Of a DNA stretch of 64,000 bases, positions 10,702 through 41,035 are shown one piece after another (the stretch's first letter is position 1; the number at the start of each line of letters is the position of its first letter). Source of the DNA: Incurvaria masculella (Eukaryota > Arthropoda > Insecta > Lepidoptera > Incurvariidae); contig OX335657.1 in assembly GCA_946894095.1 (NCBI GenBank), positions 10,540,001-10,604,000 of the forward strand, read 5' to 3'. The position numbers were made by a program, and so were the translations under genes. The notes beneath the pieces are model-generated. The model was not told the DNA's origin. It made no database searches and saw nothing but the letters and a program-made list of their open reading frames with translations.

Positions 10702-13464
10702 TCATCGAACATTATATTTCTGAATATTGATATCTCTAAATCTTAACATACCCCGTCTTAGCTCTTGAGGATTGTTTAATATTTTTTCAATATCACAATT
10801 ATAAACTAAGCTTTTATCTTCCACTGTTGGCCAATAAAATATATTTTCCTTCTTATGTCTCATAAATTTCGTAAGGTATCCATTTTCGCAAGTTTCTACT
10901 ATTTGCCCGACAAAGTATTTCACAGTCTTTTTGGAAGTGAATTTAACTAAAATGAATTTCTCATTCACGCAATTTGAAGGACATGTGACAGTGTACGAGG
11001 TTTCAGTTGTGTTGTCTGGCTGCGATTTAGCACTGGAATCTGAATCATTAAACCATTCCCCTTCAGAAGAATCATGCAAAGAAAAATCGCTTTCATCGCT
11101 GCTGTTGACTGAGATCGCTTTATTATTTTTCAATTTTAATGGAGACTTTTCCACATTAGTGCCGCCGGTTGAAGGCACAGGGTTCAAGCGTGGATTTGTA
11201 TCTTTGTGCATGTCAGTTTGAGATGGTTTCCCTTCGAAAACATCGAAGTCTCTACCTATGCGACTGAAACCACTCTTGCTCACTTTCAGTTTTTTAGATT
11301 TGGATGGAGAAAGGGACTCACTTGATAATACACATATTTTTCTTTTTTTGGTATTTGTCATTTTAAGTGTGTCTTTGGTGTCTATTTGAACTTCCTTATG
11401 GAGCACACTTAGATGTTTGACGTCTATTTGAGGTGCATTCGGTAGTGATTCACTTGTTTGGACTGGAGCAATTTCTTGAGTATCTTCAGTGAAAGTTGTT
11501 TTTATATCTTCTTTATCTATTTCTTTGGTCTCTTTTGTATCTTTGGTATTTTTATGATTTGTCTCTTTTGACTTTTTCTGAAGTGTCCCTTTCGTATCAA
11601 CTAGTTGTGTAGTCTTTTTCAGGGGGTTCTCAATGATCTTTACTTCATGTTTATTTTCGGTTTCTTCTTGGGGTATTTCCTTGGTCTCAAATTGATGTGT
11701 TTCTTGAGTATTTTCAGTGAAAAATGTTTTTATATCTTCTTTATATATTTCTTTGGTCTCTACTGGTCGCGTTTCTTCAATCTGTTCTTGAGAAGTTTCT
11801 TTGGTATTTTCATGATTTGTCTCTTTTGACTTTTTCTGAAGTGTCTCTTTCGTATTAACTAGTTGTGTAGTCTTTTTTAGGGGGTTCTCAATGATCTTTA
11901 CATTAAGTATATTTTTGGGTTCTTCTTTGGGTATTTCCTTGGTCTCAAATTGATGTGCTTCTTGAGTATCTTCTTGGAACAATTCGTTGCTACCTAAGGG
12001 AAGCAATTGTTGAGTGATTTCTTGACGTCTTTCCTTAATTCCTGTTTGAGGTACTAGTTTAATATATTTTTTTGTACTTTTTTTGTTTGTCTTTTGATTT
12101 TTGTTTTCCTTTTCAGTTTTAATTTCTTTCAGTTGCGCAATTTCCTCTGATGATATGGAAGCACCTGGCAAAACGTTTATCTTCTTATTTTTGGTTTTTC
12201 GAATGGGTTTTGGAGCACGATTTTCTTTCAAGTACGTTAAAAGAGCTGAATCAATGGAGTATTTCTCGTTTTCATCGTAATCAGGTAGTTTACTTATAAC
12301 TTTATACGGGTTATAGGGAATAATCCCGGTAGCTTGAAAGCCACTTTTTATTATATCGGTTTTATTTATATTTATCGCATCCATTAGTTTCGTCAGTAGA
12401 GCCGGAAAGTGTGATTTATTCATAGTAGATTCAGCAGGATTCTCTATTTTGTACTGCGTTAGTATTCTACGCCAGTGCTTTTTCAAGGGAGCGAAAAAAC
12501 CCACGTCAAGTGGTTGAGTTACGTGAGTTGAATTTGGGGGTAGGAACGCAAAACCAATTTGGTGTTTTAGGCATAGTTCCAAAATTTCGATATTCAAATG
12601 ACTTGAGAGATTGTCACCTATCACAACCTTTGGGCCTGCTTCTTTTTCTGCCCAAGGAATAACTATGGTTTTGAACCAGTCTTCAAATACAAATGCGTCG
12701 AACCATCCCGATTTTGTACGATTGTACCTGGCTTTACATGGTCCATTTTCACACCACGTCTGCCATAAGTGGTCCGCTTTGTAAACTGTATACGGCGGTA
12801 AAAGAGTTCCGTCTCCACAAGCAGCAAACATTATGCTAATAGACCCTTTGGTTTGATTGATGATCCGTTCCGGGTATTTTACTTTTCTTTTAAAAACGGC
12901 TTTTACAGCTCCGGGATTATCTGATAGGTTTGTTTCGTCATAATTCAGAATACACCTTTTAGGAACATCTTTTAGCGTCTCATGCAAATTTTCAAAGTAT
13001 TCCAAATATTCATCTGCAGTTTTTTCGGCCCGAGCTCTTTTTATATTCTGCGTGCTACGTGTTGTAAGTTCATTCTTGTGTCTATACAAGAAATGTTTGA
13101 CCCACCATTTCCCGGGTCGTTTGTTGTTAAATAAGCTTTCTTTGGAATTCTTCTTCAAATATTCAAAAACAGTCAGTCATAGGTCTAATTCGGTTAAAGG
13201 GGATCCAAAATCCCCTGCAGCAATCAAAACTTGTACCATTTGGGCTTCTTCAGCGTCAGTGAAACGTACTTGACCTCCAGGCAAATTTAAATGTAATTTT
13301 TTTACTTTGTTTTCGATGGTGCGTCTAGGAATGTTGAAATGTTGGGATGCCACCGCCGAAGTCATTTCGTTCTTCTGCACGTAGTCTGTTGCCAGTTGAA
13401 GCATTTCTTCTGTATAGTTTTTGTATTGTCTTGAACCTAACTTCCTTCTTACTCGTTTGGGCAT
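10702..13464 (-). pseudogene. pogo-like DDE transposase, interrupted by one in-frame TGA
   Basis: The start codon ATG is at 13462-13464, just after a CTTTTAG acceptor that suggests a 5'UTR intron. Residues 1-60 form a psq-type helix-turn-helix (YTEEMLQLATDYVQ, then FNIPRRTIENKVKKLH). A single TGA at 13177-13179 stops it after 95 residues, and the same frame then runs on for over 820 codons. The DDE_1 catalytic core shows CILNYDETNLSDNPG (first Asp), VVIGDNLSSHLN (second) and THVTQPLDVGFFAPLKKHWR (third). A Lys/Glu/Thr-rich region follows, containing a direct repeat of about 85 residues (twice with KIIENPLKKTTQLV). A conserved C-terminal domain with VKYFVGQIVE and FYWPTVEDKSLVYN closes the protein. 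The single stop suggests recent inactivation, readthrough or a sequencing difference. Confidence 0.9.
13177..13464 (-). CDS. Transposase N-terminal psq-type DNA-binding ORF (ends at the premature TGA)
   Basis: 95 residues, MPKRVRRKLGSRQYKNYTEE onward, with a helix-turn-helix that would bind the element's ends. If translated alone it would make a DNA-binding protein without a catalytic domain, which could act as a repressor of transposition. This role is inference. Confidence 0.7.
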   Translation of the reverse strand: MPKRVRRKLGSRQYKNYTEEMLQLATDYVQKNEMTSAVASQHFNIPRRTIENKVKKLHLNLPGGQVRFTDAEEAQMVQVLIAAGDFGSPLTELDL

Positions 13465-18041: not shown

Positions 18042-21000
18042 GTAAATATATCTTTGTTACATTTTATATTAACTCATAAGGCATTTCAAAATATCTATAC
18101 TATTATATTCTGTATTTGCTATATCTTTGTAATAATTATATGTAATAATGATATAATTTTTGAAAAGCCACTCTTAGTGTGCTTAGAGTGTGAACCTTCT
18201 ACTGTGCAGGCTTCAATTGACTACTCTTACAATGTGGCAAAAAAATTAAAACCAATATTAAGATGTGAGGCAACTGGGCTATTAGACATTTATTTCCACA
18301 GAAAAATCCAAACAATGAATGTTTCCACCCGTTATAGAATGGTTGATAAATTTTCTTCATATCAATGAATGGCTTAGGTAACTAAGTTTTGTTTATTCTG
18401 TATACCACTGTGTACGATTTTTAATATTATAAGTGTATTTTAGTAGTGGCACAATAAATTACCTCCTCTGCCTGACACACAGTGTTCTGATCACAGAGCT
18501 CAATGAAGACCAGCGCGCCCTGCAGGATTTGGCACGCAAGTTCACGCGTGAGGAGATCATCCCGAAGGCAGCGGAATACGACCGCAGCGGCGAGTACCCG
18601 TGGCCCATCGTCAAGAAGGCATGGAGCCTCGGTCTCATGAACGGTCACATCCCTGAGCATTGCGGTAATGTCTTCGTTTTATAAGTTTTTGTGTTGTGTG
18701 GGTTCCGGCACTTAAAAATCATAAGTGATCTCACTGCATTTCTTAAGAGGTGACTTAGGGATTTTTCTTTTGTGGTTCGGGTTACTCGTAAAAGTGTAAG
18801 TCCCCTTCCTTAATTACTGGTGGTAGAGTTAATCCCGCTCAGGTAATTTTGCATTGAATCTATTAAATCATGTATTCATTCTCATCGTGTGTACCATTTA
18901 ACATTGAGGCCAGTCAAGAGTACCAGTTTATGTAATATAGAACATTGAATTGCGTATAAACTACATAGGTATTGGGATTAATCATTAAGGCATTGGATCA
19001 CACGATAAGGAGCCAAGTAATAGAAACAAACATTCTCCCATTTGAACATGCTCAAGAAAATTATATTTAATGTTCGATATTCATGTCTTGCTTTATCTTT
19101 AGCTGTGGAGGGACAAACAATTTATTAAAACAAACTTTCAGCCGAGATGACTGGTGGGAATTTATTTCCTTGAATATTTCAAGTTTGCCCCCTTGCTTAA
19201 CCCCCTCTCAAATTACCTTTGAATATGTAGGTTTCGTCACAGTACCCATAAGCTGCGATATTCACAGTGGTTAGTTAAACTCAATTTCAAGTTGTCTTGC
19301 AATGCACTACACAATCATAATGTTTATCCAAGTGTTAGCCTTCATAAACAATTGTATGCAGACCATTGGTTAAGTAGTCGAATAGTTAAGCTGAAAATAT
19401 TTTTTTTTTGTAAACACAATGTTGCCATGATTGCATTAAGGTTTAATTTACAATGGGAAAGAAAAGTCGTCGTCTAAGCGAGCTAACCTAAAAGATCTGT
19501 CAAAGCTGTCAGATACCATACAAAATCAAACAATAGATTTGAAAATTTTATTTACTCCAAAAATGTTATTCCGAAAATAATGTTTTCTTAATTATGCTAA
19601 GCAAAAGAAGTCTTGGGAAAGAAAATATCACAAAAACAAAACCTATAATATTTCATTTTGTACTTTGTGCTGGTCAATGACAGTTAAATTTGTTTCAAGA
19701 CTAACAAAAGCTCTTCGTTTCCTCTAAACCTAATTCTAACTGCTAAATCAAAATCTAAAAACTCGTAAATCAAACTTGATAGGAATGACAGTTTTGACGT
19801 TTTAAGGTGAGGTCGCTCATGCGATATCTACAATAAACTTTGAGTTTTCTTCCCTATTAGCTACTTACACACTAGATCAATTTGTTTACGACAATTTTGG
19901 CTAATCTATGCAACTATTTTAGAAAAAAAAATGTAGCGTTTAGAGAATGTGGATACATAGATTTTTTGTTTAATAATTTTTCATCTTCACAATTACACAT
20001 TTTTGTGCATTTGCTATGAGGACCTTTGAATTGTTTTATCTTAGATTAAAGTAAATACATAGATAAAAGATACTATACACTACCAAGTCGGTATAAGAGA
20101 TAGCCTTCTTTATCTTATTTTGTTCAAATTGTAAGTGACATTGAATATTTTTCATTTCTTGCAAGACGAATGGTAAAAATATTTTTAGAAAAGTTTCATA
20201 CACTACAGTAAAAAGACAGTAAATATTGCCTTTATGGTTAGGGTGCTAGCGAGCACAATTTCATAAGTATGATCTGCCACGTCTGACACATTTTCATATG
20301 GTTACAATGGATAGAGAAAGAATCCCTAAGTTCTTTTCACTCTAAGATCGACGCCAATATAAGAGATCTCGAATTTGTCTCTTATTTCTGGTAAAGCTAA
20401 ATAAAAAACATTAAAAAATATTTTTTAGGTATGACAGGCTTACTACAAAAATCTGTGTTTATTTTAATTTAGGGTTCATCAGGGACATCTCCAGTAGTAG
20501 CATCCATGCACTAAGTAAGCTATGTGCTGCCCGCTACTTTTTTCTGTGTGAGTGGATTTGAGACCCATATAAGAAAGGTCCTGGCACCTAGTCCCATGAG
20601 GTGTCAGTCCATGTCCAGTCACAAAAAAAAAACGCTTTGCGCATAGTGTGATTAAACGAAATGATGAACAGAAAACACAGAAGTACATAATACACAGATA
20701 ATCTGTAGCCGACACTTATTCTATATATGCCACAACCACTTTGCTATCAGACTTTCCCCAGGCATTATTCTAATTTTATGGTACAAATAATGGCTTCTTA
20801 CTGAACCCATCATAATGTGCAGGAGGTACACCTATAGGGGTGTTCGGTGAATGCACCATCGCAGAGGAGTTTAGTTTTGGGTGCACTGGCATCTCCACTC
20901 CCATTACTACAACTCACCTCGGTGTAAGTTCTGTATTCAACCCTTTTGCTAATAAAACAGTGTCTGATGGGGCAAATACATGTTCGCGCATTTTCCGTGG

Positions 21001-24000
21001 TTTGTTATGAATGTGGCTCTCAAATTTTTTTTCTTTAATTGGACTCAAATATCGAGCATGGTGGTAGTAAACTAGGAGGTCGCGACAAAAATGGTAACGA
21101 TAACGTAAACGGTTGAAACTGTGTTCACATATTATATTTTTACAACTAGCCATACCCTTAATAATATGTCAACCACTGTTACTAAACGCAAATAGACTTC
21201 CTGGAAAACGGGCAGCAGCCTTGTCTAGGAGCTAAAAATGAACTCAAAAGCTAACAGCGCAATCACAAGACATATCCCGTTGTTTCTGTTGTGTTAAATG
21301 CTGTACTAATACATTATAATGTAATAACAATAATAAATAATAAAGACCAACCTTTCTGAAGCTAAATGTGTCAGTCTGCCTGCGCCAAGTTATTACGTTG
21401 CCTAGATATGGCACCTGAAAAAGTAGTTATAGTGACAAAAAAAATATCTCAAGTATATAAATGGCTGCAAATAACGCAGCATGAAAGTATTAGCATATAG
21501 TTGTTTGGTAAAACTGAACAAATTGTTGGTTGCATTTCGTAGTTATAGCGATTTAGGTTACAGATATAACATTAGGTATAAAGTATTTAATAAAAAAACC
21601 GACTGGTTATTGTCGTATAATTAATAGAAATCAATATGTCCAGACAATCAGTATATTCATCAGCAGGTATATACGAACATCTATTTTGTATAGGCAATCT
21701 AGCTAACGCAACCACTTGGCGCAGGCAGACCGACATATCTCTGGCCTGTAAACTCTAATTCAGTCATTTACCTTATCGTGACCAAAAATGTCGTGATCTC
21801 CCGGAATATAGGTACTAATGCAATTCTACATCGCTGAATTAATACATCATCGGTTATGCATAATTAAATCGTCAGATATTTTGATCGGTGTAAATCATAT
21901 AGTAACAAACTACAGCTCCATATAGTCTTTCCAGGACTATGCAGCTTAACCCTCGGCATTGAACAAAGATTGCATTTTAAATTGAGGCAGGTTATGACCT
22001 TCCATGCAAATGCAGCAAGAAATTCTTGGCGGGATGGAAATCCATACCGCATAATGAGCTGCCGAATCAACAATATGCCTACCTATTCTTAAGTTTTCGC
22101 TTCTACTTACAGGTGGTATACCTTTGAGTGTGACCATCAAATGTGCCATAGCAGAAGAGTTTTCCTTTGGGTGTTCGGGAATACAGACAGCCATTGACGG
22201 CACAAACCTTGGTGTAAGTTCCACCTCACACTGCGGTGGTTCAATGTCTACGGTTTTTGGGATGTTGAAACGCTTTCCTCATGCCTACTGCTAAAACGTT
22301 CCAGCTGAATCTCGTGACTTGCAATATGGTGCTTAAAATGGACAAAATGTGCCTAGGGGCTGACTTATCTAATTGGAAGGACTAGATCGGAGAATGTGCC
22401 TAGGACATTATAGTAATAATTCATGTTAAATTTTAAAGTTGTTCCAATTACAATAATATATTGAGTTACTTGCGTTGTACAAACGGCATCACTCTAGACT
22501 TTGACCCATTGACACATACGTTTTCCTTGCAAACGCTAATGCCTATTGTGGCGCCGAGGGTGATGCACTCTGTACCTACATATTACATATTATCATTGTA
22601 CCAGTTTTATTTTTCTGGTCTGCCTTAAGTATTGCATTATGTAACATATACATTTTTACATTATCTTATCTTTGCGACATGACTGGGTGAACATGACTTT
22701 AGGTTGAAACCAAGCATTCGTCAAAACTTTAACAGGCACAATCTTTTTTTTAAGTTTGAAAAACATTATTTCTAACTAACATCATAAACTTCACTTTACA
22801 AATTGCAAGTGAACACAATGGAACGATTGTACTTTAACATTCTATTTTGCGTTTTTGTTGTTGTTTTACCTACATAATCTTCAACGTCAAAACAGTGCAA
22901 TACCCCTAGATCAAGTAGATCTCCTGGGCCCCTACTACGAACCCTATCGAGTAGGCGCTATCGATTAGGCGATGTCGCCTGTCAAAAATATTGTATGCGT
23001 TTGACAGATGGTATCGAAAACACTGTCGATACCATCTGTCAAACGCAAACACTGTCGATAGTGCCTACTCGATAGGGTTCGTAGTAGGGGCCCTGTTCAA
23101 TTGAGCTTAGACAGCGAAATCTTATTGTATTACATTTATATCAAAATAAAATCATGATGGATTGAATTAACCTGCGACCGTCGGATTACATGTCGGCTGC
23201 TTGACCACTGAGCTATGCACACCGCCAGGATTTAGTGTCTTTAGCTAACAGAATGAATCTAATGAAACCATCAATTTTTTTAATGTTTCGCCGCTTGGTT
23301 TGTCAGAGCAATAGGGGCTTTGCTAATGATGATGACAAAAGCTTGTACAAAACAGAAGAGCGAATGGAATTCTCTGGAATACCTACTTGTTGTGCAGGAG
23401 GAATGTGCACGCCTATCGGAGTGTTGGGTGAATGCGTCATCGCAGAGGAGTTGTGTTTTGGGTGCGCTGGCATCTCAACTCCCATTATTGTAACAAGTGT
23501 CGGTGTAAGTTTAATGTTCCAACCATTTGCTTCAACAGCAGGATGCGGTTGGGAAAAAGTGTTTGCGAATTTTGCAGTGGAATGTGGCTCTTCCAAGCTT
23601 TTGATTGGATTTTTTAATTGGACTCGAAACTCGCGCATGGCTTGTGGTAGATAACAATGTAATTTCAACATCGCTAAAGTGAGAAAAAAAAAAATTTTGG
23701 TTATGTTATTATACAATCGTCACATTGATTTCCACAACTCCTATCTGAAGCTGAATCCTCGGCATTAAACCAAAATGTAATGATTTGGAATATTTATTTC
23801 GCTTGTAAATGGGGGCAATTCCCCTCACATAATTTCTACTAAGACATTTTCGACGTTATGGCAATCCGTACCACGCAAGGGACAGAATCAAAAGATTTCA
23901 TATTTTGTGAAGTTTTTACTTTTATTTACAGGTGGTTTACCTTTGGGTGTGACCATGGAATGTACCGTTGCGGAAGAGTTTGCTTTTGGGTGTACGGGGA

Positions 24001-27000
24001 TAATGACAGCCCTTGACAGCTCAAACCTCGGTGTAAGTTGCACCTTACACTGATTCAGTGTTTTCTGTTTTGGGTCTTTGAAACGCTGACTAATGCCTGC
24101 ATCAAAATTATTTCGGGTGCTTCTAATGTCTTGTAATATGGGGCTTAAAATTAGGCAAAATTAAGTAGGCACTGAACTAAATAAATTTCAGGTAAAGATC
24201 CCCTATGAGCTACGTAACCTGAGCTACAAAGAGAGACTAGAAGCCCTAAACCTGCCTACTCTGGAGTCACGCCGTTAGAGAGGGGACCTAATTGAAGTTT
24301 ACAAAATTCTCACCTTTAAGTAAGACTGCCCAGAACTGATGGAAATATTTGCACGCAACAAGAATTTTTGTCTTAGAGGCCAAAACTTGAAACTGAAGAT
24401 AACGGCATTTAGAACTAATACTCTTAGGCTGAGATAAATAGTCGTCACCGAAACTAATGCTAACGCAAAGTACTTTGTGACGTCAATTGGCATTCGTCCA
24501 TACAAAATGTGTCAAAGTGAAGTCACAAAATACTACTATTCGTTGGTCTTAGTTTCTGTTACAACTATTTATCTCAGCCTTAAAAACTAGGATATATATC
24601 CAACGGAGCAGTAGAGGCATGACAGAAACTTCCAAAGGTGTGATTAACCCAACGACCACCAATCAACAAAAAAAAAAGGCTGGATAACCGTGTCAAACAA
24701 TATCATTAGAAAACAAAACTATAAATATATCACATAAAATATAACCAGAAAATCATTGGATAGTTAAATAAATATTTTTGGTAAGTTTTCAAGGCAGGTA
24801 ATTATAACACATAGTGTTTTTTTTGTGAATTACTCCAAAATTGAATACTAGTGGTCATTTACACCTGTGTATTGCAACAGTACACCCCAAAGGTTGGTAG
24901 GTACAGAATGCCCTTGGGCGTGGTCCGCCTTTTTAAATATTTTAAAACAGTTGGAAGATATTAAAGAATTATGTTATTATTATTTATTATATCGTAGGAC
25001 TTCATGAAATATGTATATGGATTATTTATTTAGTGCCGAGGTTATCACCTTTTACTTTGAAAAAACTTGTCTTTTCTCTGAAAAAACGTATCTGTTAAAA
25101 AACTGTCTGTCTGTCAGTATAAAATAAACTCAGCTTAAAACAAAAAAAATACATATTCAGAACTTAGGTGTTTTTTTGTTTTAAGCAGAGTTTATTTATA
25201 CGACTAGGTATATTTATTTCTTCTGGATATTGAAATATATTATTTATCATGTAATAACACAGAAGAGGCAATTAAAACAATTTTGTTTGTTGTGCTTTTG
25301 ATAAAAAAATAAAATACTTTTTATTTGCCTTTAACTTATTTACCACAGTAATTTGAGATTTCTCGCCATGGAAAAACACTAAAAAATACCTTTTTGATAG
25401 CATACCGTTTATCATTATTGCCCTCTAGGCCAAGGTCCACATGTATTAACTTTGAAAAAAGATTTTTGGAAAACTTTTTATTTATTATCATTTCAATCCT
25501 GCTCTGCGTGTAAATTTTTATTGTTGAAAAGATAATCAAAGCAATATTCTCTAATTTCTAGCCAAATTTGATATTGAACTGTTGTTATGATCCGTGAATA
25601 GAGGGACGCACAAGTTAGACTATTTAGTTTCTTTTTCACCTGTGAAGGACGGAACGTAAAACACTTAAAAATCGTCAAAAATGATGCATTAAGGATCAAT
25701 AGTTCACAGGATTACGATTTTCTATCAGCCTCACAAGTATCCTCATATCTAATCTTAAACCTTGTTGATGGCAACGTAGTTTGATACCAATGCTAATAAA
25801 GGCAACGTAGCTTGATAAAAATACTAATAAATCTTATCATAACACCAAGCTTTTATCATGAAGTAGTGTATATGTTAAAATACATCAAATGTATATATAT
25901 TCCTCGTTTTGCCAATCGGCCATTGATTGCCGCGAGGCAATTTATTCCTGGCATCCCATACGCACTCCCATGACGACTCATTTGTATCTTATGTTCCCCC
26001 CCCCATATCCGGGCTATGAATCACACAAACGCTTAGATTATAAATTTTATTGGCCAGTAAATTTAAAATCTCGTAAAAAATATTTATTGACGTTCCTCAT
26101 ATTTGTAGTAATGATGCTGATCACTTTGTTCTTTCATTTGGTACTCTTTAGCAATGTTTAGTATATCTAGTGAATTTTTTTATTTTTATTTCATATTACT
26201 TCATATTACTGGCTGGATGTCAGTAGTATCGGTGGGAACGCAAAGCAATCATCTTTAGAACTGGTCGTGAAGTTCATTTGTAATACCTCCCTGCCAAATG
26301 ATTAGGTTGTTACAAAACCAATTCATTCGTACTTTGGGAGAGACACCTCTGCAGCTAGTGCATTCCACAGTCTAACCGACTGGTTGTGAAGTCCCATAGT
26401 AATACCTAACAAATGATTAGGATTCGTGTCACAAAACAATATCAGTGGGAACACAAAGCAATAATCTGTAGAACTGTTAATGAAGTTCATTTGTAATACC
26501 TCCCTGCCAAATGATTAGGTTTCTTGTTACAAAACCATTTCAGTCTGTACTTTAGGGGAGACACCTCTGCAGCTAGTGCATTCCACAGTCTACCCGACTG
26601 GTTGTGAGGTCCCATAGTAATACCTAACAAATGATTAGGATTCGTGTCACAAAGCAATATCAGTGGGAACACAAAGCGATAATCTTTAGAACTGTTAGTG
26701 AAGTTCATTTGTAATACCTCCCTGCCAAATGATTAGGTTTCTTGTTACTAAACCATTTCAATCTGTACTTTAGGGGAGACCCCTCTGCAGCTAGTGCATT
26801 CCACAGTCTACCCGACTGGTTGTGAAGTCCAATAGTAAAAGCTAACAAATGATTAGGATTCGTTTCACAAAACCATTTCAGTGAACTTATCCTACCGTCT
26901 TTATTACTTGCAGGCGGCACACCTATTGGTGTTACTATGGAATGCACCATAGGAGAAGAGTTCGCTTTTGGGTGTACGGGAATAACTACAGCCGTGGGCG

Positions 27001-30000
27001 GAACAAATCTCGGTGTAAGTTCCACCTTGCGCTGCGGTGGTCACATGTCCTACCTACTGCTTCGTGTTGTTGGAACACTTTGACTATAACACTGCTTGGG
27101 GTAATCTGATGTTTGTCAATATTTTGGTTCGAATGTATGTAGGACTTAATCATGACATAATCTCATTGGGGTAATTTTTTTCTTATTTATTTTGCAGAAC
27201 CATTGTAGTAATTGGCACATGTTTATCTATTATGCTACAACCAAAATTTTCTTAGCTTGTATTTAACGCTTAGATTGTATCATGTTAATGATTTCCTTAC
27301 AATACGAGTCTGTCTATGTTTGTGATTTAAAACTGTGGGTAGGTATGTACAGTTGGGGGAATATTCAATGCATGCACCATGTAATTTCTTCGTCACGGTA
27401 GTTCAAAGTAACACTTGGCAAACAACCTGGAATAATTAGCCTCTCAGTGAGCATATCTAAATACGTAGGGTAGGTTGGAAATGAAACAACAACTGGCTTA
27501 AACATGAGTGGACTGAAGCAATTAATCTTAGTTCACAGTGCACAGCAGCTGTTTAAAAATTAAATCCCAAAGACTTTTTTATATTGAAGGAACCTTAAGG
27601 CTGGCTGCACTTTTGATATCGTTTCGTACGAATTGAAGTCGTGTAAACATGTAAAAATACGCATGAACAATTCCGAGTTGTATGGCAGCCCGCACAGTGT
27701 GAGAAAGTCGAGGGGTTAGTCACTCGAGCAAAAAGTGTACACCAGATTCCCAGTAGTCAAGATTTCCTTGGGATTTCTAGATTCCTAAAGATTTCCAAAG
27801 ACTACCAAAGATTCTTAGAGATTCCTAAAGATTTCCAAAGATTCCTGGAGATTCCTAAAGATTTCCAAAGACTACCAAAGATTCTTAGAGATTCCTAAAG
27901 ATTTCCAAAGATTCCTGGAGATTCCTAAAGATTTCCAAAGACTACCAAAGATTCTTGGAGATTTCAAATATACTGGGATTTCGTAAGATTTCTGAGGACT
28001 ACCAAAGATTCCTAGAGACTACCAAAGATTACCTGGATTTTTAAGGACTACCAACACATTTTTGGTACATTCCAATGATTTCGGGATTTCTAAAGATTCT
28101 TAGTGACCACCAACGATTCAGAGACTTATAATTGCGCGTTGCGCGCAGCACGTGTCCGTGACGTCATCGCAGACAGGCGGGCGGCGCGGCCGGCGGCGGG
28201 GGTCGGCACGGGCGCGGCGTCCGCGCGAGGCGGCAACAGCGCGGGCACGGGCGGCGGGGGCGAGCGGCGCCCGCAGGAGACGGCAACGGCGCGGCGGGCG
28301 GGGAGCCCCCGCGCCGTGGCCGTGCGATATTCGTTTTGGACATATTTACCCAGGCGGAATCCGGTTAAATTAGATCCCATATTATCTCAGCGATCTTTAG
28401 ATCAGCGCTGATTTTTTCTTTCCCTGAGGCATTATACAATACCATTTTTGAATCCACAGTACATATTTCACATACTAAATTTCAAGATGAGGTACTCCGC
28501 TCTTTCGAAATCTCTTAGAATCTCAGCCATCATTAGGTCAGGGTTGATTTTTTTTTTGCCTGGGTCATTATAAAAGGCTATATTTGAAACCTTAGCAAAT
28601 ATTTCACGTAGAAAACTTCGCGATTAGGTAGGTACTCTTCTTTTTCGAAATCCCTTGCAGTCGTATTCACTGTGAACCTGTAAAAACTTGGTACGAGATT
28701 AGCACCGGACTAACCATACAAAAACCGGTTTACTTCGACCTTAATACGCGTAGTAAAGTTAGTCCGCCCCGAGCTCGGTTCACAACATACCTACAATCAT
28801 CTAATTATTTAATCAAAATACATACAATAAACACAGTAAACAAACCGGCCAAGTGCGAGTCGGACTCGCACACAAAGGGTTCCGTACCATCGTAAATGAT
28901 TTAACACCAAAAAATCATATTATTTGTATTTTTTTATTATCTTTAAATTTTACTTATTTGTTGTTATAGCGGCAAATTAAATACTCACTCTGTGAAAATT
29001 TCAGCTACGTACTTATTACGGTTCATGAGTAACAGCTTTGTGACAGACGGACGGACGGACGGACAGCTGAGGCTTAGTAATAGGGTTCCGTTTTCACCCT
29101 TTCGGTACGGAACCCTAAAAAGTAGTATACGCATGATAACCTTCTATTCGCTTAGTACGCGTATTAAGGTCGGACTAAACCGGTTTTTGTTTGGTTAATC
29201 CGGTGCTTATCCCGTACTAAATTTTGACAGGTTTACTCTGAATACGGCTGAATATGTTTTGGAATTGTGTCGTCGGGCACACGCGGGGTGCGCGCTGCGC
29301 ACACTCGTGCGCACACGTGTGCGTGATTTCTTCGCAAACTGGCGGCCGCGCCCACGGCCGCGCTATCATTGTTAGATTAGATCCCGTATTATCTCAGCGA
29401 TCATTAGGTCAGCCCTGTTTTTTTTTTGCCTGATGCATTATGCAATACCATTTTTGAAGCCATAATACATATTTGACATACTCAACTTCACGATGAGGTA
29501 CTCCGATCTTTCGAAATCCCTTAGTATCTCAGCCATCATTAGGTCAAAGTTGATTATTTCTTTGCCTGGGCCGTTATAAAAGTCTATATTTAAAAACCTA
29601 GTAAATATTTCACGTACTCGAGATAAGGTACTCTTATTTTAAAAACCTTTACAGTCTTATTCAGAACTAACCTGTCAAAACTTACGTACTGTACTAGAAT
29701 TGCACCGGACTAAGCATACAAACGGTTTAGTCCGACCCCGACAAGATTATCTGAGATTACAAAGACTTTGATCGGATTGCCAATGATTCGCTTAGGATTC
29801 CTACACTCCCTGGGAGTACTCGAGACTACCCAAGATTTTCCTATTCCTCGGACTCCCGCCCAGGATTACTCGAGATTTCCATTAATTTGAAAGGATTCCC
29901 AATGATTTCCTTGGTATTCTCAGATTCCTTAGGATTACTCGGGATCACATAAGATTTCCAGATTCCTCGGACTCCCATCGGATTCCTCGGACTCCGCCTA

Positions 30001-33000
30001 AGATTACCCGAGATTTCCATGAATTTGATAGGATTCCCAATGATTTCCTTGGGATTTCCAGATTCTTTAGGATTACTCGGGATTACATAAGATTTCCGAG
30101 ATTCTCCGGACTCCCACCAGATTCCTCGGACTCCCACCTAAGATTCTTGAGATTCCCAAACGATTGTACACCAGATTCCTTGAGTGAGTGACCCCTCGGA
30201 GAAAGTTGTGCGTGCACGCGCGGCGCATATGTTGAAATAAATCTCAAATTGTTCAGATTTTGTATGCGTTCGTTCGTAAACTTATTGTCCATCAAGAGAC
30301 ATGATCTTGTGACAGTTACTGTCAAGATAAGCTGCTTAGGAGTCATGTTGCACCATTACAATGATGAAAGTGACCAAATTCATATCTTTTACGTTTATTT
30401 CATGCACCCTTTAGGTTCTACGATGGAACTGACACCCCGCCGTAGTCACTGAATCATTAAAGATATTTTATCTAGAATATTATATAATTCATTGAGATGA
30501 AAGAATTTTGAAAATTTGAGGCTTGCCTGAGTTGACCGCATCTTTTAAAAAAAAGATGTGGTTTATTATTGCTGATTTCTTTTTAACCAACCGTTGCGAT
30601 TATGCCAATATGACGAACATAATAGGGACGTTATGTTGATTATAATATAGATGGAAAATGTTTTGCCCTTTTTTCATTCAGACTAGTGTTATAAAATTGC
30701 GGAAAAATCTGGTGCTCTATGCACATTTAACTTCTTCTACTAAATAATAAAATTTTGCATCACCAAAACATTATTATACCTGCAAATGTTTGCACACTTT
30801 TGGGTGATACTTTGGAATGCAAACTCAGAAAAAAGTTTCCAATAAAACTCTATATGTTCATTAAATTTCGATTCAGTCCATTTGCAAAATTATAAATTGT
30901 GCTTATAGGTGTGTCAAAATTATTTCGTGTTAGTGATTCTTTCAGGAAAGAACATTTTTTGGATCAGTTTGTGTTCATCCAAATAGATGGTATTGGTTTT
31001 TTTTATGAATTATGATAGATTGGGGAGTTGGAGCATGTCAAGTGGGCGGTCACAAATTCGTAGCCATGAAGGCTTACCCTTGGTTTGCAGATCCATGGGC
31101 ACACATACTTTTAAAAAAAAGTGAATTGAACCATTAAACTCTACTTTAGATTAACTGATACTTCTCAATCGTTCTTATCAGTTAATTAATTTAGGTAATA
31201 AATTTTTTTAGTTGCGAAAATTAAACTTCCTTGCAGCAATTTTGCAGGTTTTTCTAGGACTCAATTCTGATTTGAGCCATTAGCATAAATCATTGATTTG
31301 AGCAATTCCGATTGTTTGTAACTATACATGTTCGTGTCCTAGTAGGATTCCGATCGTTGCTTGTTGCCTTAAAATAGCACCTATGTGTAGATTTCATAAA
31401 AAAATTAATGAAAAACAAATTACAAATATAAATTAGTATGCAAATACAAAAAGATGTATATCATGGATACAAGTAAAGTTATCGAAAAACCAACTCGTAC
31501 AGACGTAGCTCACACGTGATTTATTTATGGTGCAAAATTAAAAAAAAAATCTTAATTTGACTGAGGAAATAGGCACGAGCCATTGTATGGAACTTGATCA
31601 CCTCATTATCCTCTTAAGCAACCCACTGTCGATTAGATTTTTTTTAATGCAAATCCTGACATGCATATGCCAGCCTGTAACCTAAAGGACTCCAAACGAC
31701 CCGAATGGGCCTTCGAATTTCGCAGCCCCCAGGTTGTACTTTAGGGGAAATACCTCCTGCATTCTATAGTTTACCGACCCTATGGATCCCTGCTAATTGC
31801 GCTCAGCGACGGTAGAATGGGAACAGAGGGATAGCGTAATGCATCTGCAAAGATCATTCTCCGTGGTACACACAATAGTACACAGAAAGAGAACCTCCAC
31901 CCTTTGGAGTTATAGAGTCTTCAAATTCTGGGAATCGGCGACAAGACTCACGGCATGCTGCTGTAGTCAAAGGAGCCAAGCAGGTGCTTAGCTGATCTGT
32001 CTAACAGATGTGAACAATACTTCAGACGAGACGTTATCTGCGCCTCGTAGAGAAGTAGTTTACTGACAACCTGTTCAGTAGTCAGCTTTTTTAAGGCGAA
32101 CTTGGCTTTGTAACCTCAATATGGTGGTGTCCAATATAGCTTTGGGCAGGGGTTTCAGGGCCATAATAAACCTTGGACTCCTGTCCCACGTAATCGTGAG
32201 TAAAGAGGATGCCGATGAAAACTTTTGTTAAGCTAAACTAAAATCTAATCACACAAAACTATTACAAAACTCGGGAACCGCACATCTGTTTATTGTGTTT
32301 GTAACGTGTCGATGAGGTACCTATGTATGTCTATCAATGTATGTCTGGTTGCAGGGGGTATTAGCATGGGAGTGTTCGACGGGTGTTTGGTGGGAGAGGA
32401 GCTCGCATTTGGGTGTACGGGTATCATGACGGCCATGGAGGCCAGCGGGCTCGGTGTGAGTGTGCAATGTTCGTCTGCATGCTTCTTCATTTACCTGTAT
32501 TTATGTTGAGCTGCACTGCCTTTTGATCTAACTGGCTGGAACCAGGTGTAACCGAAAATGGTTACCGAAATTAAGAAAAAAAAACCGGCCAAGTGCGAGT
32601 CGGACTCGCACACGAAGGGTTCCGTACAATTGTAAAAAATAAAACAAAAAAATCACGTTTTTTGTATGGGAGCCCCCTTTAATTTTAATTATTTTTTAAT
32701 CTTACCTATTTGTTGTAGCGGCAAAATAAATACACAATCTGTGAAAATTTCAGCTGTCTACCTGTTACGGTTACTGAGATACAGCCCTGTGACAGACGGA
32801 CAGACAGACGGACGGACGGACAGCGGAGGCTTAGTAATAGGGTTCCGTTTTCACCCTTTGGGTACGGAACCCTAAAAATGGACGCTTATTACATATTAGG
32901 TCGTCTAAAGGCTGGACCCCACCGAAATAGTTAACACATTATCATGATGTTATGTCATCCATTTGATCATGTTCATCCAAATGCATGTGCTTACTGTAAA

Positions 33001-36000
33001 CTCACTGCACTCTTGATGTGTTTAATTATGTGATTAGTAAATATTTCCAAAATTATTGGATGTAAATTATTAATCTCTGGGAATTCAATATATTTAAAAA
33101 TAACGATTGCATGCTATGGTATCAATGCCAATACCATCGTCAATATCATCGAGAAGTAGTCGCCACAAAATATATGGTTTTACTTAAAAGCTTTGCTACC
33201 AAAACGATAGTTTGGGAAGCACATGCTATATGCATGCATAAATGTAATTTATTAAGCATTCATATGATTAAATGTTTGCACCTATCTTTCTTAGGTATCA
33301 CGTGACTGCACCAAACCTGATGTCAAAACACAATACTGACTTATATTTTTGAGGCTGTTAAATGGCGTAACCGATAAAATTCAGCATGGTAATATCTTAT
33401 CTTCTTTCTATAGTGGATCATTGAGGCACCAGGTACTTACTTAATTTGTAGGTGCCTCACAATACGCTGATAGTGGACTAAGACTTTGGAATGCTCTTAT
33501 CTCATTTAGGTTAAGGTGCAAGTTTTCATATTTATCTACTATCGTAGGATTGCGCTGTTGTTCTAGAATTTAAAATGATAAATATATCCAACTTTTTATA
33601 TCAAGGCTCCTAAAAAAAAAGGATGGCAACTCAGACTTTGAAATTATTTTAAATCTGAATGTTTGCAGTCCATTATTATCTTATTTATTTACTTATATTA
33701 TGTACTTATTTTTATTCGATCTATATCTAAAAGTAAGTACGGTAGGTAATATTTTGAGAAGTCTGCTTACCGGCGCGAAGGTGGCGAAGCGCATCGCTTC
33801 TGCTCGATGTTGCGACCCCTTCTGTGACCCGCCTGCTTCTCAAATTGCAGCTGTGGGTAGGAATTTATTCCGGATTGGCTGCGTTCCTTCGTTCTGCGTT
33901 CCGAGTTCCGGTAAGCTGACTTCTCAAAATATTATCATGAGTGACTGCGCGGGACGAAAAATGTTGAGTAAGATAGGTAATACTAGATGCCTATACTAGA
34001 ACATTCTGCAGTACATCACTAAGATGAAATACATGAAAACATTAAATTCTAGAAATAGAATCGGCAAATAACCATAATAGGTATTGCATCTTTGGTAAAT
34101 AAATACTAATTTGTAATTTTATTCATAATAAAAATGTCTCGCAATTATGAATGGGGGGGTAGAATATCTCATGGAGAAAAAATATAAGAGATTGCAAATT
34201 GTGTATGTAACGATTGACCTATGTACATGTTATTCAGCAAACTCCCGTGATCATCGCCGGCAATAAAGAACAACAGAAGAAGTACCTCGGCAGACTAATT
34301 GAAGAGCCATTAGTCGCGGTGAGTGGACCATGCATATAAATTTCCTTAAGATGTAAATTAAATTACCTATTTCGTTTCGTGTTTTGTTTATTATCCTTCA
34401 TTGGATTTACAAACTCTTGGATTCCTCGACGTTTCCAAAGTAACATCACTTTTTTTCATGCCGAGCATATCGTAAAGGCAATCAAGGGATTCGTTGATCA
34501 TGTTTAGGATTCCACTACTAGTAGGTCCCCTTCCTTACCAGGTGGTAGGGTTAATCCCGCCCGGGGTCGGTAACATCGCATTGATGATGGTCAAAGCGAA
34601 ATGAAAACGCCAACCAGTTCAATGTACCTGAGCAATTTAAGAAAGGTCCTGGTGTGGCACCTAGTTCCCATGCGGTCTGTTGTGCTAATATTATGCCACT
34701 GGGTGTGGTACTACCAATTCTTGTCCAGTTACATTAAAAAACCCTTAACAAAGGCCCTGAATGGCTAAGATATGAATATTGATCCTGCCGGGAATTGGGT
34801 TTCAGTATTTGCAGCTAAATTCACATCAGTCAAATTGTCAGCAAGGTATGTATGTGCGCAGGCCTACTGTGTGACTGAGCCGGGCGCGGGTTCGGACGTG
34901 AACGGCGTGAAGACTCGCGCCGAGAAGAAGGGCGACGAATGGGTCATCAACGGGCAGAAGATGTGGATCACCAACGGTGGCGTCGCTAACTGGTCAGCCA
35001 TAATCACTTCTTCCTGCCAGTATTCCAACTCAGGGGTAGAAGATTAATAGTAGCCAAAGTTTTAATAATTCTATGTAGATATCTTGATTTTTTATTAATC
35101 ATTAAACAAAAAACCTCTATCTGATGGCATCCATTCACGTATTCAACCCACCCACAGTGACATGCGGTGGCGGTAGCCAACATTAATCTGATTCTTATAT
35201 ACTTGTAGTAATATCCAAGCTATAAATAATATTTTTTGTAAGTTTTTACAAAATCAAACATTTTACTCAAACCAGAGTAGATACATCACCGTTGTCATTA
35301 ATTTGGGGTTATACAACGATATCTACATTAAAATATTGTATCCGATTTTGAAACTTACAAAAAGAATAAATAGTTTTTTGGTCTGGACATTCGTAGCAGG
35401 TAGAATTCGAACCTGCGATCTTGGGATTACATTTCCACTGCTCTAACCTCTAAGTTGTCCAGACAGTTACATCAGCCAACAAAGGACATTACCGATTTTA
35501 CTATGGGCCATAAAAGCGCTGTGACTTAAACGAGACCATATCAACCAAACGTATTTTAATTCCTCACATTTTTACATACAATAATTAATATGATTTACTT
35601 TACTTTCACAGTAGGAATAACCCGTAAGACACTTTTTAAAATACATATTTGAGGTTAGTCTTGTGAAATGTTACTTTTCTTTGTGTGTTTTTCGTCACAC
35701 GGAAAGGCAAGGACTTTCAGCTTAGAACCATAAATCATATTTTTCTATTATTTACGAAAAATGCATTTAAATTAAATCTGGCTGATAACCTTTTCCTTTC
35801 GATCCAAAGGAAAATATTATAGCGCCAGTCGGTTCTCCTTAAACTATTGAACACATACTGACCAATCTTTACCTTGATACATAAATACAATCTGTCATGA
35901 TGACGCCATGTCGTGGATGGAGCTGCCAGATATTGGTATAGAAAATAGGGCAAAACTAAACCGGAACTATGAGGATAACATATTTTATTAGTAGCATAAT

Positions 36001-39000
36001 TCATTTTACTATATGCAGAATATATTAAGTTTAGATTTTTAATGTAGATAAAAGACTATGAGATTAATCCTTTAGCTGAAATCGCAAGATAGGATTAGAA
36101 TGTCATGTCGTTACCTATTACTTTTTTATTTTTATTATTTTCGATTATTATCTACAATAAATCTATCTAAGAAATCTATAAATCTGATTGCAATCCTCTA
36201 ATTTTAATGTCGCTCTATAACCTAAAATAGAGTTCTGACACACTATACATGATATACCAAGGAGAATATAATTATGTTTTTACTTAGAGTCTGGTAGGTA
36301 TTATTCTGCCAGGGATAATGCGTAGCAAAATAATTAATATAATTAGTGGATTGTTCTTGCAGGTACTTCGTGCTAGCGCGGACCAATCCTGACCCCAAGG
36401 CGCCCGCGAGCCAGGCTTTCACCGGCTTCATCGTGGACCGCGACACACCCGGCCTCACTCCCGGCCGCAAGGTACGTTCAATTTTAGTGCTACTCACACA
36501 TTTAGCTTTTTTTCCCATGGTCTATTAAATATGTTTATATTATCGGTTCTTAGCTGGTGGTTCACGGACCATTAGTGGTCTCTGGCAGAACCCATTTAGC
36601 GGCCTTCTACATTTACTGTTGATGTTCCATGGCAAGAAAGAAATGTTGTCAAATAGGAACCACTCATCACAAACAGTAGTATTCAGAGAGGACCTGTCAA
36701 AACCTATTACGAGATTAGCACTGGACTAAACATTGAAAAACCACTAGTAAGAATGTGTAAACAATGCAATACTTGGCGAGATGAATTTGAAATCTTCTCA
36801 GGGTCACCTTCGTTAGTGAAGAGACTCAGTCCTAAGTCCGTGTAGGTTGTGTGTTAAATTGAGTTTTGCTTTTTATTTTCACTTCCTATTAAGTTTTTAA
36901 AATATTTTGTAATTAATATCTCATTGAACTTTATTTAAATTTTTAGTTTACTTTTATGATAATGCCTGTTTTCATTTACATTTTCATCTTAGTTATATTG
37001 GTAATCTTTTATTAATCTACGTTTCACTCACTGCTGCAACATTATAAATCGCATGTTGTGTTCACTAGTTGTAGAGTGTGTGTCCATACTATGTATCTGT
37101 TTGTTATTTTATTTTTACATGTTCTAACACATTACTCTGTAAGTGAACCTTATAAATAAATAAATAAATAAATAAACCGGTTTAGTCCGACCTTTAAGCG
37201 CATACTAAAGTTAGTCCGCCCACTCTGAATTGAGCTGTAAAAGGTTAGGAACCACTGTGTTATAGGAAAAGGCTGCAGAGTATTCATATAGAAGTGTTTA
37301 GTAAATGCCAGATGCCCCATCTAGCAGTTACTAACCAAGTAGAGCTAGGCAACCTAATATCATCTAATTAAAAAGGGTTTGTTCAATTTGGTTAATTTGG
37401 GTTGAGCTAGGACAGGTTCCAACCTTTGACTAGTTACACCTATGTAGGTTCGAAGTCACTTCAACCTTCGACTACAACACTAGTTATACTTTTTTATTTT
37501 AACTTTAATGTATCGAATCCTCTGGCATAAAATACTAGGACCGACCTTGTATGCAGCATTCTGATACAATCAACCTGTAAGCACAAATTTACCAAACTAT
37601 GAAGAAATTACAATGTTTTTGCTCAGTGAAGATTGTGCTTCTTTGATAAAGGATTTTTTTGTATTCCGAAAATTGACAACATAATATGCCTTTGAAATGT
37701 TTATTTCATTTGCCACGTTGTGTTGCAACTAAGCGCGCGATTAAGAGTGACGTGACAACAAAACTCCCAGTAGCAATGGAGTGGCATTTTTTGAAGACGT
37801 CTTTGATTTGAATTTTTGTGGTATTCATGATAAATCAAACTTATTTCAATATCCCTATTGCAATTACAGGAACAGAACATGGGACAGCGCGCGTCGGACA
37901 CGCGCGGCATCACATTCGAAGATGTACGGGTGCCCAAGGAAAACGTGCTGATCGGCGAGGGAGCCGGCTTCAAGATTGCGATGGGAGCCTTCGACAAGAC
38001 CAGGCCACCGGTTAGTGTCTTCAGATTGTAACTGTATAGAATAGTTTCTGCTCATTACTGTGCCTCTATTGGAAATTGACATGAAACTCGATGCAACTTA
38101 AAACACACAGATGCTAACATGTACTCAACTTTGTTAGATTAAGGGCTTGGTACTAGCCAAATCGCAAAGTTAGACGAGGCACCCCAAGTTAACTAACTAA
38201 GTCTGACGATTATAAGTGTCATTCTTACAATATATGATTCCTTGTCTAGGAATCGAATTATTTTCGTTAATGTATGTTTCCTTTTTCTATACAAAATACA
38301 TTGCGGAAACGGTGTCCATTTCCGAACTTTTTTGACTAAATGTAGAAATCTAAAAGCAAATGGAATTTTTTGTTTATGCATATATGCTGTTTTTGCTTAT
38401 ATCTAGAAATCGAATTACTTTCAGATTTCTAATGAGAAAAATCAACTTTTTTATTTTTATTATTATTTAAATAAATGATGGAATAAAAAAATATTAACAA
38501 TCCATTATCAGTCTGGAGTTCTATTTGGATTTGCTGAAGCGTTTCACTACATATTATTACATTTGTTAAAAAGTGCATTTGTATGGCGCGAGTAGTTGGC
38601 TAGTCCTAGCGCCTTAACTCCATAGAGGCCCAATGTACCCTAACGCAATTCACAAATGTGTATAGGCTACCCGTAGCCTATCGGTGTTGCCTGTGTTCAT
38701 CAAATCATGGTATTAATAACGAGATTCGTAGGAGCACCTAATTTTGAATGGTAATTTAATTTGTTTCACCTATTCTCAATTTATTTTACAAAAGTGTCCA
38801 TACAGTACGCTCTGATTCAAAGAAAAAGAAAGGCTGCGTAATGAGGTGGTCGCAACATATCCACAAAGAAGGCAATGCCAATAGTTTTTGCTTTGGTTGG
38901 ATTAAAAAAAATTACATGCATTTAATACTGTATGTAGTCATAAATCGAACAAAAATCTAATTGATTTTGAATCTCCATGGAACAAGCCAGGCTTGATCAA

Positions 39001-40775: not shown

Positions 40776-41035
40776 GGCCGGCGGAGCGAGCCGCGCCGTC
40801 CGGACGCTCACAGAACCGGGGCTTCGTTGTCTCCGAAACCGCTGGGTTTATGAGAGTCGACAACCATCACCATGCCGGTTTCTACACAATCTAAGATGGC
40901 ACCTCCCATTGATGCACATACAATCTCTGTTTCATAATGGACTGCCGTTGTGTTAATATCAACGTCACACTCGTTTTCAAGTTCAGTTCTGCTTTTGGAA
41001 TACACTGAAATTATCAGGACGGATAGATCAATGTA

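What the first reader, a model, noticed from the sequence alone, without database searches (positions are those of the whole stretch)
20823..32455. Six-fold mutually exclusive exon cluster in a medium-chain acyl-CoA dehydrogenase gene
Six homologous exons lie in tandem between two constitutive ACADM exons. Five are exactly 101 nt and one is 107 nt. All have good AG/GT sites and the same phases (1 in, 0 out), and all encode the same 34-residue segment with FGC[TSA]GI. Because 101 and 107 both leave remainder 2 on division by 3, skipping all of them or using two shifts the frame. Only one-at-a-time use gives MCAD. I know of mutually exclusive exon clusters in Dscam, Mhc and ion channels, but not in an acyl-CoA dehydrogenase. 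This looks like an undescribed way to make several beta-oxidation enzymes from one gene.
Basis: partly seen in the sequence, partly recalled or inferred. Interest (0 to 1): 0.96.

Follow-up and report, generated by a model that had tools for sequence, protein, structure and literature searches.

The report
Fat-burning enzyme with six swappable exons
In a likely moth or butterfly genome, one fat-burning enzyme gene carries six alternative copies of a single exon that encodes part of the pocket for the fatty acid, and it is predicted to splice in one copy at a time, which would likely let one gene make several enzymes with different fat preferences; annotated proteins of 28 other butterflies and moths show the same kind of swap.

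Summary
Six homologous exons (five of 101 nt, one of 107) lie between two constitutive exons of an otherwise single-copy MCAD (ACADM) gene. Of the 64 ways to use them, only the six single-exon ways keep the reading frame. In public protein sets, 28 other lepidopteran species have two to five MCAD isoforms that differ only in this segment (69 of 70 isoform pairs identical elsewhere). The alternative class most like window exon e also occurs on a transcript-sized contig. So this is a mutually exclusive exon cluster shared across the sampled Lepidoptera, not a local oddity. The segment carries pocket positions 95, 96, 99, 100 and 103 of MCAD. Position 99 reads T, D, I, D, G, E in window exons a-f and mostly E, G, Y or L in the four main lepidopteran classes; pocket positions switch between hydrophobic and other residues far more than the rest. 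Best reading: alternative splicing swaps part of the acyl-CoA pocket and so, predicted, tunes substrate choice. No RNA from this species was available and no substrate assay was found. The closest precedent is the two-way exon 3a/3b swap of acyl-CoA oxidase ACOX1. Public annotation already lists such isoforms, but my literature searches found no paper describing the cluster.

The parts
18497..18664 (+). constitutive MCAD exon upstream of the cluster (ELNEDQ...HIPEHC; ends in phase 1)
   Evidence: tblastn to MCAD, splice sites
20823..20923 (+). alternative exon a, 101 nt, [35 protein letters not shown]95, P97, T99, T100
22113..22213 (+). alternative exon b, 101 nt, [35 protein letters not shown]95, D99, G100
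23398..23504 (+). alternative exon c, 107 nt (36 residues), nearest to a; S95, P97, I99, V100, V103
23932..24032 (+). alternative exon d, 101 nt, nearest to b in DNA; M95, D99, S100
26914..27014 (+). alternative exon e, 101 nt, closest to the widespread lepidopteran G class (T95, G99, G100; 26 of 34 to its consensus)
32355..32455 (+). alternative exon f, 101 nt, canonical MCAD exon (M95, E99, A100; 30 of 34 to the lepidopteran f class); 3'-most
34238..34318 (+). constitutive MCAD exon downstream of the cluster ([19 protein letters not shown]...)
34862..34992 (+). constitutive MCAD exon ([12 protein letters not shown]...)
36363..36471 (+). constitutive MCAD exon
37870..38010 (+). constitutive MCAD exon
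39708..39897 (+). constitutive MCAD exon
40543..40776 (+). last MCAD exon, with the catalytic-Glu motif [10 protein letters not shown]; its coding part ends at the TGA directly after AAGCAGACGCAG

Best explanation
A single MCAD gene carries six homologous alternative exons for a segment that holds five substrate-pocket positions of the enzyme, and splicing is predicted to put exactly one of them into each mRNA, which would likely give MCAD forms with different acyl-CoA substrate preferences. Shown by sequence: six open exons with usable splice sites, of which only single use keeps the frame; dN/dS below 1 between the duplicates; isoforms of one gene differing only here in 28 other Lepidoptera; strong and chemically radical isoform-to-isoform change at the pocket positions. 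Inferred: that this species splices all six; that zero-exon and multi-exon products are discarded, most simply by nonsense-mediated decay on top of ordinary splice-site competition; that the pocket change alters which acyl-CoAs are oxidised and that use differs by tissue or stage. The origin would be tandem duplication of an ancestral f-type exon before the window's lineage split from the other sampled Lepidoptera, followed in this lineage by duplication of an a-b pair into c-d.
For: Frame logic: 6 of 64 exon subsets open, all single use. The gene is open from ELNEDQ to its stop and otherwise single copy; best solved relatives are mammalian MCADs, 1udy and 3mdd, E about 1e-191. Selection: dN/dS below 1 in 15 of 15 pairs; 29 of 34 third codon positions vary against 13 of 34 second positions. 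Splice sites comparable with the constitutive exons. Relatives: 28 species with two or more isoforms, 69 of 70 isoform pairs identical outside the segment (built from 75 of the 124 proteins listed). Fused gene models show the exon order with the f type last: P0003, P0004, P0005, P0014, P0121, as in the window. Expression: of the non-f G class, P0097 has as its only contig one of 1,636 bases with a complete 424-residue ORF, which a gene with introns can give only after splicing (a retrocopy apart); P0092 (25 contigs), P0116 (3) and P0066 (2) carry the same source label 'lgn' beside genome sources. Pocket: a human MCAD cryo-EM paper names residues 121, 124, 125 and 128 among its 11 cavity residues, and Q120 and T121 in the hydrogen-bond network that determines substrate accommodation (precursor numbers; minus 25 = mature 95, 96, 99, 100, 103), all in this segment (PMC10709515, passages). 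An LCAD paper ties the shape of helix E to cavity size (PMC11153573, passages). Tests without class labels: isoforms of one species differ at pocket positions in 0.73 of comparisons against 0.39 elsewhere (4,423 of 200,000 position shuffles as high); they switch between hydrophobic and other residues in 0.46 against 0.05 (15 of 100,000) and score 0.57 against 3.71 on BLOSUM62 (348 of 100,000). Clustering 108 segments on residues 71-94 alone gives four groups whose residues 99-100 are EA (42 of 42), GG (31 of 37), YI (19 of 22) and LT (4 of 7). Among the window's own exons the pocket positions are also more varied (3.4 residue types against 2.3 over all 34, shuffle fraction 0.031).
Against: No RNA from this species. 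None of the 30 Y-, K- and D-class proteins among those listed carries the read-assembly source label, so for those classes support is annotation only. No assay shows changed specificity. Docking-site/selector RNA pairing was looked for and not found: best common partner sites were no better than six shuffles (donor side -29.6 against -29.9 to -32.4; acceptor side -21.8 against -22.2 to -24.6). The segment also holds three residues of the ETF anchor pocket (mature 73, 75, 83 after renumbering PMC11153573); these differ between isoforms as often as the pocket (0.81), though conservatively (hydrophobic switch 0.07), so substrate choice may not be the only thing tuned. Exons a and c put a proline at position 97, and a region search with exon a found no close match, so they could be less active or degenerate products. 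The recent pairs b/d and a/c have dN/dS of 0.80 and 0.54, compatible with relaxed as well as diversifying change. My first pocket test was circular because the classes were named by those residues; it is not used.
Confidence: 0.75

Rival explanations
1. Only f (and perhaps e) is used; a-d are recent duplicates on their way to decay or spliced at noise level.
For: A region search with exon a found only G-like relatives; the pairs a/c and b/d have the highest dN/dS (0.54, 0.80); exon a has a weak pyrimidine tract.
Against: All six frames and splice sites are intact; a and b against their older partners show dN/dS of 0.10-0.36, and 0.46 for b/f; clusters with up to five isoforms are annotated in relatives.
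Confidence: 0.15
2. The swap is real but its main effect is not on substrate: it tunes electron hand-over to ETF, stability or other contacts, or it sets MCAD level through unproductive splicing.
For: The segment holds three of the seven residues of the MCAD pocket that takes up ETF beta-Leu195 (mature 73, 75, 83; PMC11153573 passages), and isoforms differ there in 0.81 of comparisons (3,045 of 100,000 shuffles as high). In the window position 73 reads T, I, T, L, T, I. Unproductive combinations are plentiful (58 of 64).
Against: Changes at the ETF positions are conservative in the 28 species (hydrophobic switch 0.07 against 0.46 for the pocket). Regulation by poison exons would not need several coding versions kept open. 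The strongest and most radical changes are at pocket positions 99 and 100.
Confidence: 0.2
3. Assembly or annotation artefact: collapsed paralogous genes or copies pasted into an intron.
For: Tandem and dispersed repeats fill the introns between the exons.
Against: The other MCAD exons are single copy in the window; the six exons are only 15-25 of 34 identical to each other, so they are not misassembled copies of one exon; the same architecture is annotated in 28 other species.
Confidence: 0.02

Closest known systems
ACOX1 (peroxisomal acyl-CoA oxidase 1) exons 3a/3b
   Same: A fatty-acyl-CoA-oxidising flavoenzyme, recalled to share the acyl-CoA dehydrogenase fold; a mutually exclusive exon swap with reported difference in activity toward palmitoyl-CoA (PMC12318918, table passages; primary paper not held).
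   Different: Two exons not six; oxidase, peroxisomal; whether its exon 3 covers the same structural segment was not tested here.
OGDH exons 4a/4b (mitochondrial 2-oxoglutarate dehydrogenase)
   Same: Mutually exclusive duplicated exon in a mitochondrial metabolic dehydrogenase, tissue-biased (PMC7969005, abstract and passages).
   Different: Two exons; toggles calcium sensitivity, not the substrate pocket; exclusion enforced by distant branch points in a short intron, while here the introns between alternative exons are 427-5,340 nt.
PKM exons 9/10
   Same: Mutually exclusive exon in a metabolic enzyme (table passage in PMC12318918).
   Different: Two exons; glycolytic enzyme; different functional outcome.
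Insect Dscam1 and similar large exon clusters
   Same: More than two tandem homologous exons, one chosen at a time.
   Different: Cell-surface recognition protein (recalled); docking-site/selector pairing is described there (abstracts in a search listing), and no such pairing rose above shuffles here.
Mammalian MCAD (ACADM)
   Same: Same enzyme family and domain order; catalytic-Glu motif YEGTSQIQR kept.
   Different: No swap of this exon is reported in the papers searched; the mammalian gene structure itself was not examined here.

Membership tests
Mutually exclusive exon cluster | Tandem homologous exons between two constitutive exons, same phases | tested here: met
   Six exons, phase 1 in and 0 out
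Mutually exclusive exon cluster | Zero or multiple inclusion breaks the protein | tested here: met
   58 of 64 subsets have premature stops; only the 6 single uses are open
Mutually exclusive exon cluster | Alternative exons kept by selection | tested here: met
   dN/dS below 1 in 15 of 15 pairs; 0.80 for b/d, so weak for that pair
Mutually exclusive exon cluster | Transcripts that each contain one of the exons | tested here: inconclusive
   Not available for this species; in relatives f- and G-class proteins sit on transcript-sized contigs, Y, K and D only in annotation
Mutually exclusive exon cluster | Mechanism of exclusion (steric, spliceosome incompatibility, RNA pairing or decay) | tested here: inconclusive
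   All sites are GT-AG and introns are 427 nt or more, which argues against steric and U2/U12 incompatibility; no pairing above shuffles; decay is inferred from frame
Medium-chain acyl-CoA dehydrogenase (ACADM) | Acyl-CoA dehydrogenase domains and highest similarity to MCAD rather than SCAD, LCAD or VLCAD | tested here: met
   MCAD structures score 626-641 bits; the next hit is 1ukw (395.7), then rat SCAD at 270 and LCAD at 218 (exon f form); Pfam PF02771 and PF02770 in the first 161 residues with exon a
Medium-chain acyl-CoA dehydrogenase (ACADM) | Catalytic glutamate (mature 376) between helices J and K | tested here: met
   YEGTSQIQR in the last exon aligns with solved MCADs
Medium-chain acyl-CoA dehydrogenase (ACADM) | Activity with C6-C12 acyl-CoA | not testable with these tools
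   Needs enzyme assay
ACOX1-type exon swap that changes chain preference | Same exon position and measured change in substrate preference | not tested
   No ACOX1 sequence was aligned; primary paper not held

The most novel reading that the evidence does not exclude
Lepidoptera use mutually exclusive splicing in place of gene duplication to make a repertoire of acyl-CoA dehydrogenases: one MCAD gene swaps part of its acyl pocket among two to six versions (E, G, D, Y, L, T or I at residue 99), giving homotetramers, and possibly mixed tetramers, specialised for different acyl chains such as unsaturated, branched, shorter or plant- and pheromone-derived ones.
Probability: 0.5. Interest if true: 0.87.

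Novelty: new variant of a known kind. Interest (0 to 1): 0.76.

Why it matters
The exon swaps in metabolic enzymes that I found in print (ACOX1, OGDH, PKM) are two-way switches. A six-way swap aimed at the substrate pocket of a central beta-oxidation enzyme, shared by butterflies and moths, would mean that fatty-acid substrate range can be set by splicing. It gives a natural series of pocket variants on an identical scaffold for enzymology. It also offers a testable link to lepidopteran lipid specialisations such as diet, flight fuel, diapause and limited chain shortening for pheromones. Single-isoform annotation or cloning of lepidopteran MCAD would miss most of the enzyme.

Tried and rejected
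Docking-site/selector RNA pairing: scanned 60-nt stretches next to each alternative exon against the whole cluster; best common sites were no better than six sets of shuffled stretches. The inverted-repeat pair I22 (24035-24058 with 33501-33524) looked like a selector for exon d but is one of 75 pairs (25 shown, 70-97% complementary), so I dropped it.

Structure prediction of two butterfly isoforms (P0083, P0115) gave mean pLDDT 41.6 and 38.5; discarded, and no fold search was run on them.

Pocket divergence by residue-named classes was circular; replaced by within-species tests and by clustering on residues 71-94 only. In these, 35-residue segments were brought to 34 by dropping one residue near position 74, so positions 73-75 are less certain.

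The first exon of the gene (mitochondrial leader) was sought with leaders of relatives and not found (best E 0.12). An Rfam scan of the window found nothing. A region search with exon a returned 7 proteins from 8 candidates, none a close relative of a. The NCBIfam scan gave 22 families, every one below its cut-off. Several exon boundaries were first placed wrongly and corrected.

Rows dropped: of 124 proteins listed gave no segment by the pattern (P0002, P0003, P0004, P0005, P0014, P0063, P0068, P0105, P0110, P0121) and P0124 fitted no class. 75 proteins of 28 species entered the isoform comparison. Clustering left out six further rows that are not, or may not be, lepidopteran. One row (P0110) was skipped in the tree. 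One search listed only the best 120 of 7,664 hits, so absence of other orders or classes there is not evidence of absence.
Full report
WHAT IS THERE. The window holds one MCAD (ACADM-type) gene on the + strand. A tblastn scan finds the exon before the cluster and six exons after it, each once, and between them six copies of one exon (one further chance hit at E 4.3). The assembled protein from ELNEDQ to the stop has 384 residues with exon f. It matches solved mammalian MCADs best, 1udy and 3mdd at 640 bits, against 396 for 1ukw, 270 for rat SCAD and 218 for LCAD. The leader exon was not found. The six alternative exons are a 20823-20923, b 22113-22213, c 23398-23504, d 23932-24032, e 26914-27014 and f 32355-32455; all enter in phase 1 and leave in phase 0.

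ONE AT A TIME. I enumerated all 64 subsets of the six exons between the constitutive exons. The six single-exon products are open to the natural stop; the other 58 carry a premature stop, at the latest after residue 121 of the assembled part. The remainder argument alone does not exclude four exons together; the actual sequence does. Splice sites of the six resemble those of the constitutive exons: donors match 6 of 9 consensus letters against 5-8, and pyrimidine counts are 8-13 of 17 against 7-11.

NOT OBVIOUSLY DEAD. Pairwise dN/dS is below 1 in 15 of 15 pairs (0.10-0.80; two extra codons of c left out). The highest, b/d 0.80 and a/c 0.54, belong to the two pairs with the lowest dS. The flanking introns of b and d align over about 259 nt at 76%, and of a and c over about 261 nt at 70%, while e shares 131-145 nt with d and b at 77-78%. 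So an a-b pair was probably duplicated to c-d, and e is a relative of b and d (inference).

RELATIVES. A protein search with the f form returned lepidopteran MCADs whose source names include isoforms X1 to X5 (best 120 of 7,664 listed). Of 124 proteins listed fall into f (52, five of them not or perhaps not lepidopteran), G (31), Y (22), K (6) and D (2) forms of the segment; P0124 fits none and 10 gave no segment. In 28 species with two or more listed forms, 69 of 70 pairs are identical outside the segment; the exception, Pieris rapae, differs in length. Colias croceus has five forms. The species belong, by recalled taxonomy, to Nymphalidae, Pieridae, Papilionidae, Bombycidae, Noctuidae, Pyralidae and Crambidae. 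Five gene models that fused exons show f last, after K, G or Y exons (P0003, P0004, P0005, P0014; P0121), the order seen in the window. On a tree of the constant part (39 rows, quick method), the window lies outside 33 other rows, whose named members are all lepidopteran (SH-aLRT 96 and 95), with a caddisfly and a beetle further out. The best identity of the window to any row was 88%, so it is none of the species on that tree. Exon e fits the G consensus at 26 of 34 positions and f fits the f consensus at 30 of 34, so at least f and G probably predate that split (inference). I could not tell whether caddisflies have the cluster.

EXPRESSION IN RELATIVES. The source label 'lgn' I take, from recall, to mean assemblies of public sequencing reads. 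Ten f-class proteins with that label as their only source have longest contigs of 1,398-2,526 bases (two of them, P0080 and P0112, fall outside Lepidoptera on the tree), and the G-class P0097 has 1,636 bases with a full 424-residue ORF. P0092, P0066 and P0116 are G-class with 25, 2 and 3 contigs and 'lgn' among their sources. Such short contigs with full ORFs imply spliced RNA, a retrocopy apart. None of the Y (22), K (6) or D (2) proteins carries that label, so their use rests on annotation.

WHAT THE SEGMENT DOES. By alignment to solved MCADs the segment is mature residues 71-104. A cryo-EM paper on human MCAD lists residues 121, 124, 125 and 128 among 11 cavity residues and Q120 and T121 in the hydrogen-bond network for substrate accommodation (PMC10709515, passages). 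The paper prints T124 and A125 where the human chain has E and G; I use the positions. Mature numbers are 95, 96, 99, 100 and 103. A paper on LCAD reports that a proline (132) near the start of helix E unwinds it and enlarges the cavity (PMC11153573, passages). Window exons a and c carry a proline at 97, two or three residues further along by my eye alignment (inference). At position 99 the window exons read T, D, I, D, G, E for a-f. Isoforms of one species differ at 99 and 100 in 98% of comparisons; the five pocket positions average 0.73 against 0.39 for the other 29, and 4,423 of 200,000 random position sets do as well. The changes are radical: hydrophobic-to-other switches in 0.46 against 0.05 (15 of 100,000), mean BLOSUM62 0.57 against 3.71 (348 of 100,000). 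Species are not independent; only positions were shuffled. Clustering 108 segments on residues 71-94 only, without the pocket, gives four groups whose residues 99-100 are EA in 42 of 42, GG in 31 of 37, YI in 19 of 22 and LT in 4 of 7. So the forms are coherent types with their own pocket chemistry.

A RESULT THAT CUTS THE OTHER WAY. The LCAD paper also lists seven MCAD residues that take up ETF beta-Leu195. Its numbers exceed mature ones by 29 (it gives Glu405 for mature Glu376), so three of the seven, mature 73, 75 and 83, lie in this segment. They differ between isoforms in 0.81 of comparisons (3,045 of 100,000 shuffles as high), but conservatively: hydrophobic switch 0.07, BLOSUM62 1.82 with 15,643 of 100,000 as extreme. 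In the window, position 73 is T in a, c and e. Tuning of electron transfer is therefore a live rival or companion effect. Position 80 also changes strongly (0.97) and I have no role for it.

MECHANISM. Shown: frame incompatibility. Inferred: splice-site competition picks one exon, and products with none or several are removed by nonsense-mediated decay. Steric blocking is unlikely because the introns between alternative exons are 427-5,340 nt; U2/U12 incompatibility is unlikely because all sites are GT-AG with ordinary donors. A docking-site model was tested on this one sequence and not supported. Functionally, an enzyme with the same catalytic base but another pocket would prefer other acyl-CoAs. 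Limited beta-oxidation is a recognised step in moth pheromone synthesis (PMC4575462, passages), and that paper also cites the view that it takes place in peroxisomes, so a pheromone role is speculation.

LITERATURE. Ten full-text searches of the held open-licence library were made. No title or abstract listed concerns mutually exclusive exons in an acyl-CoA dehydrogenase; the lists were capped (15 of 116, 20 of 31, 15 of 39), and the library lacks most subscription journals. Of the hits I looked inside PMC12318918 only; the others were seen as listings. That review (passages) reports ACOX1 exon 3a/3b as mutually exclusive with different palmitoyl-CoA activity: the closest precedent. OGDH 4a/4b is a mitochondrial case (PMC7969005, passages). 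A silkworm pan-transcriptome paper counts mutually exclusive exons, but its main text does not name acyl-CoA dehydrogenase (PMC13072181).

VERDICT. Real and shared across the sampled Lepidoptera; splicing in this species and substrate tuning remain to be shown.

Noticed in passing
window 26227-26883: About three head-to-tail copies of a roughly 213-nt unit (89-93% identity) end some 30 nt before alternative exon e.
   Followed up: no
window 27759-30158: Long intronic stretch of diverged short repeats built on AAGATTCC-like units, with a very GC-rich island near 28140-28330 (by eye) and two related repeat blocks at 28364-28740 and 29371-29737.
   Followed up: no
window 10702-13158 (-): 818-aa ORF with a DDE_1 endonuclease domain (PF03184, E 1.5e-19), a transposase-like gene upstream of MCAD.
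   Followed up: partly
window 22926-23093: 39-nt inverted repeat, 97% complementary, with a nested 26-nt hairpin, between exons b and c; looks like a small mobile element.
   Followed up: no
window 44567-50509: Exons that look by eye like a Piwi-type Argonaute gene downstream of MCAD; the 112-aa ORF at 50171-50509 had no Pfam match, so this is recall only.
   Followed up: no
P0003, P0004, P0005, P0014, P0121: Public lepidopteran MCAD gene models that fuse two or three of the alternative exons, or parts of them, into one protein.
   Followed up: yes
P0072 and P0102 (Pectinophora, Hyposmocoma): f-class segments with K95 instead of M95 while keeping E99, a mixed state between classes.
   Followed up: no
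segment position 80 (mature numbering): Differs between isoforms of one species in 0.97 of comparisons, as much as the pocket positions, with no role known to me.
   Followed up: no
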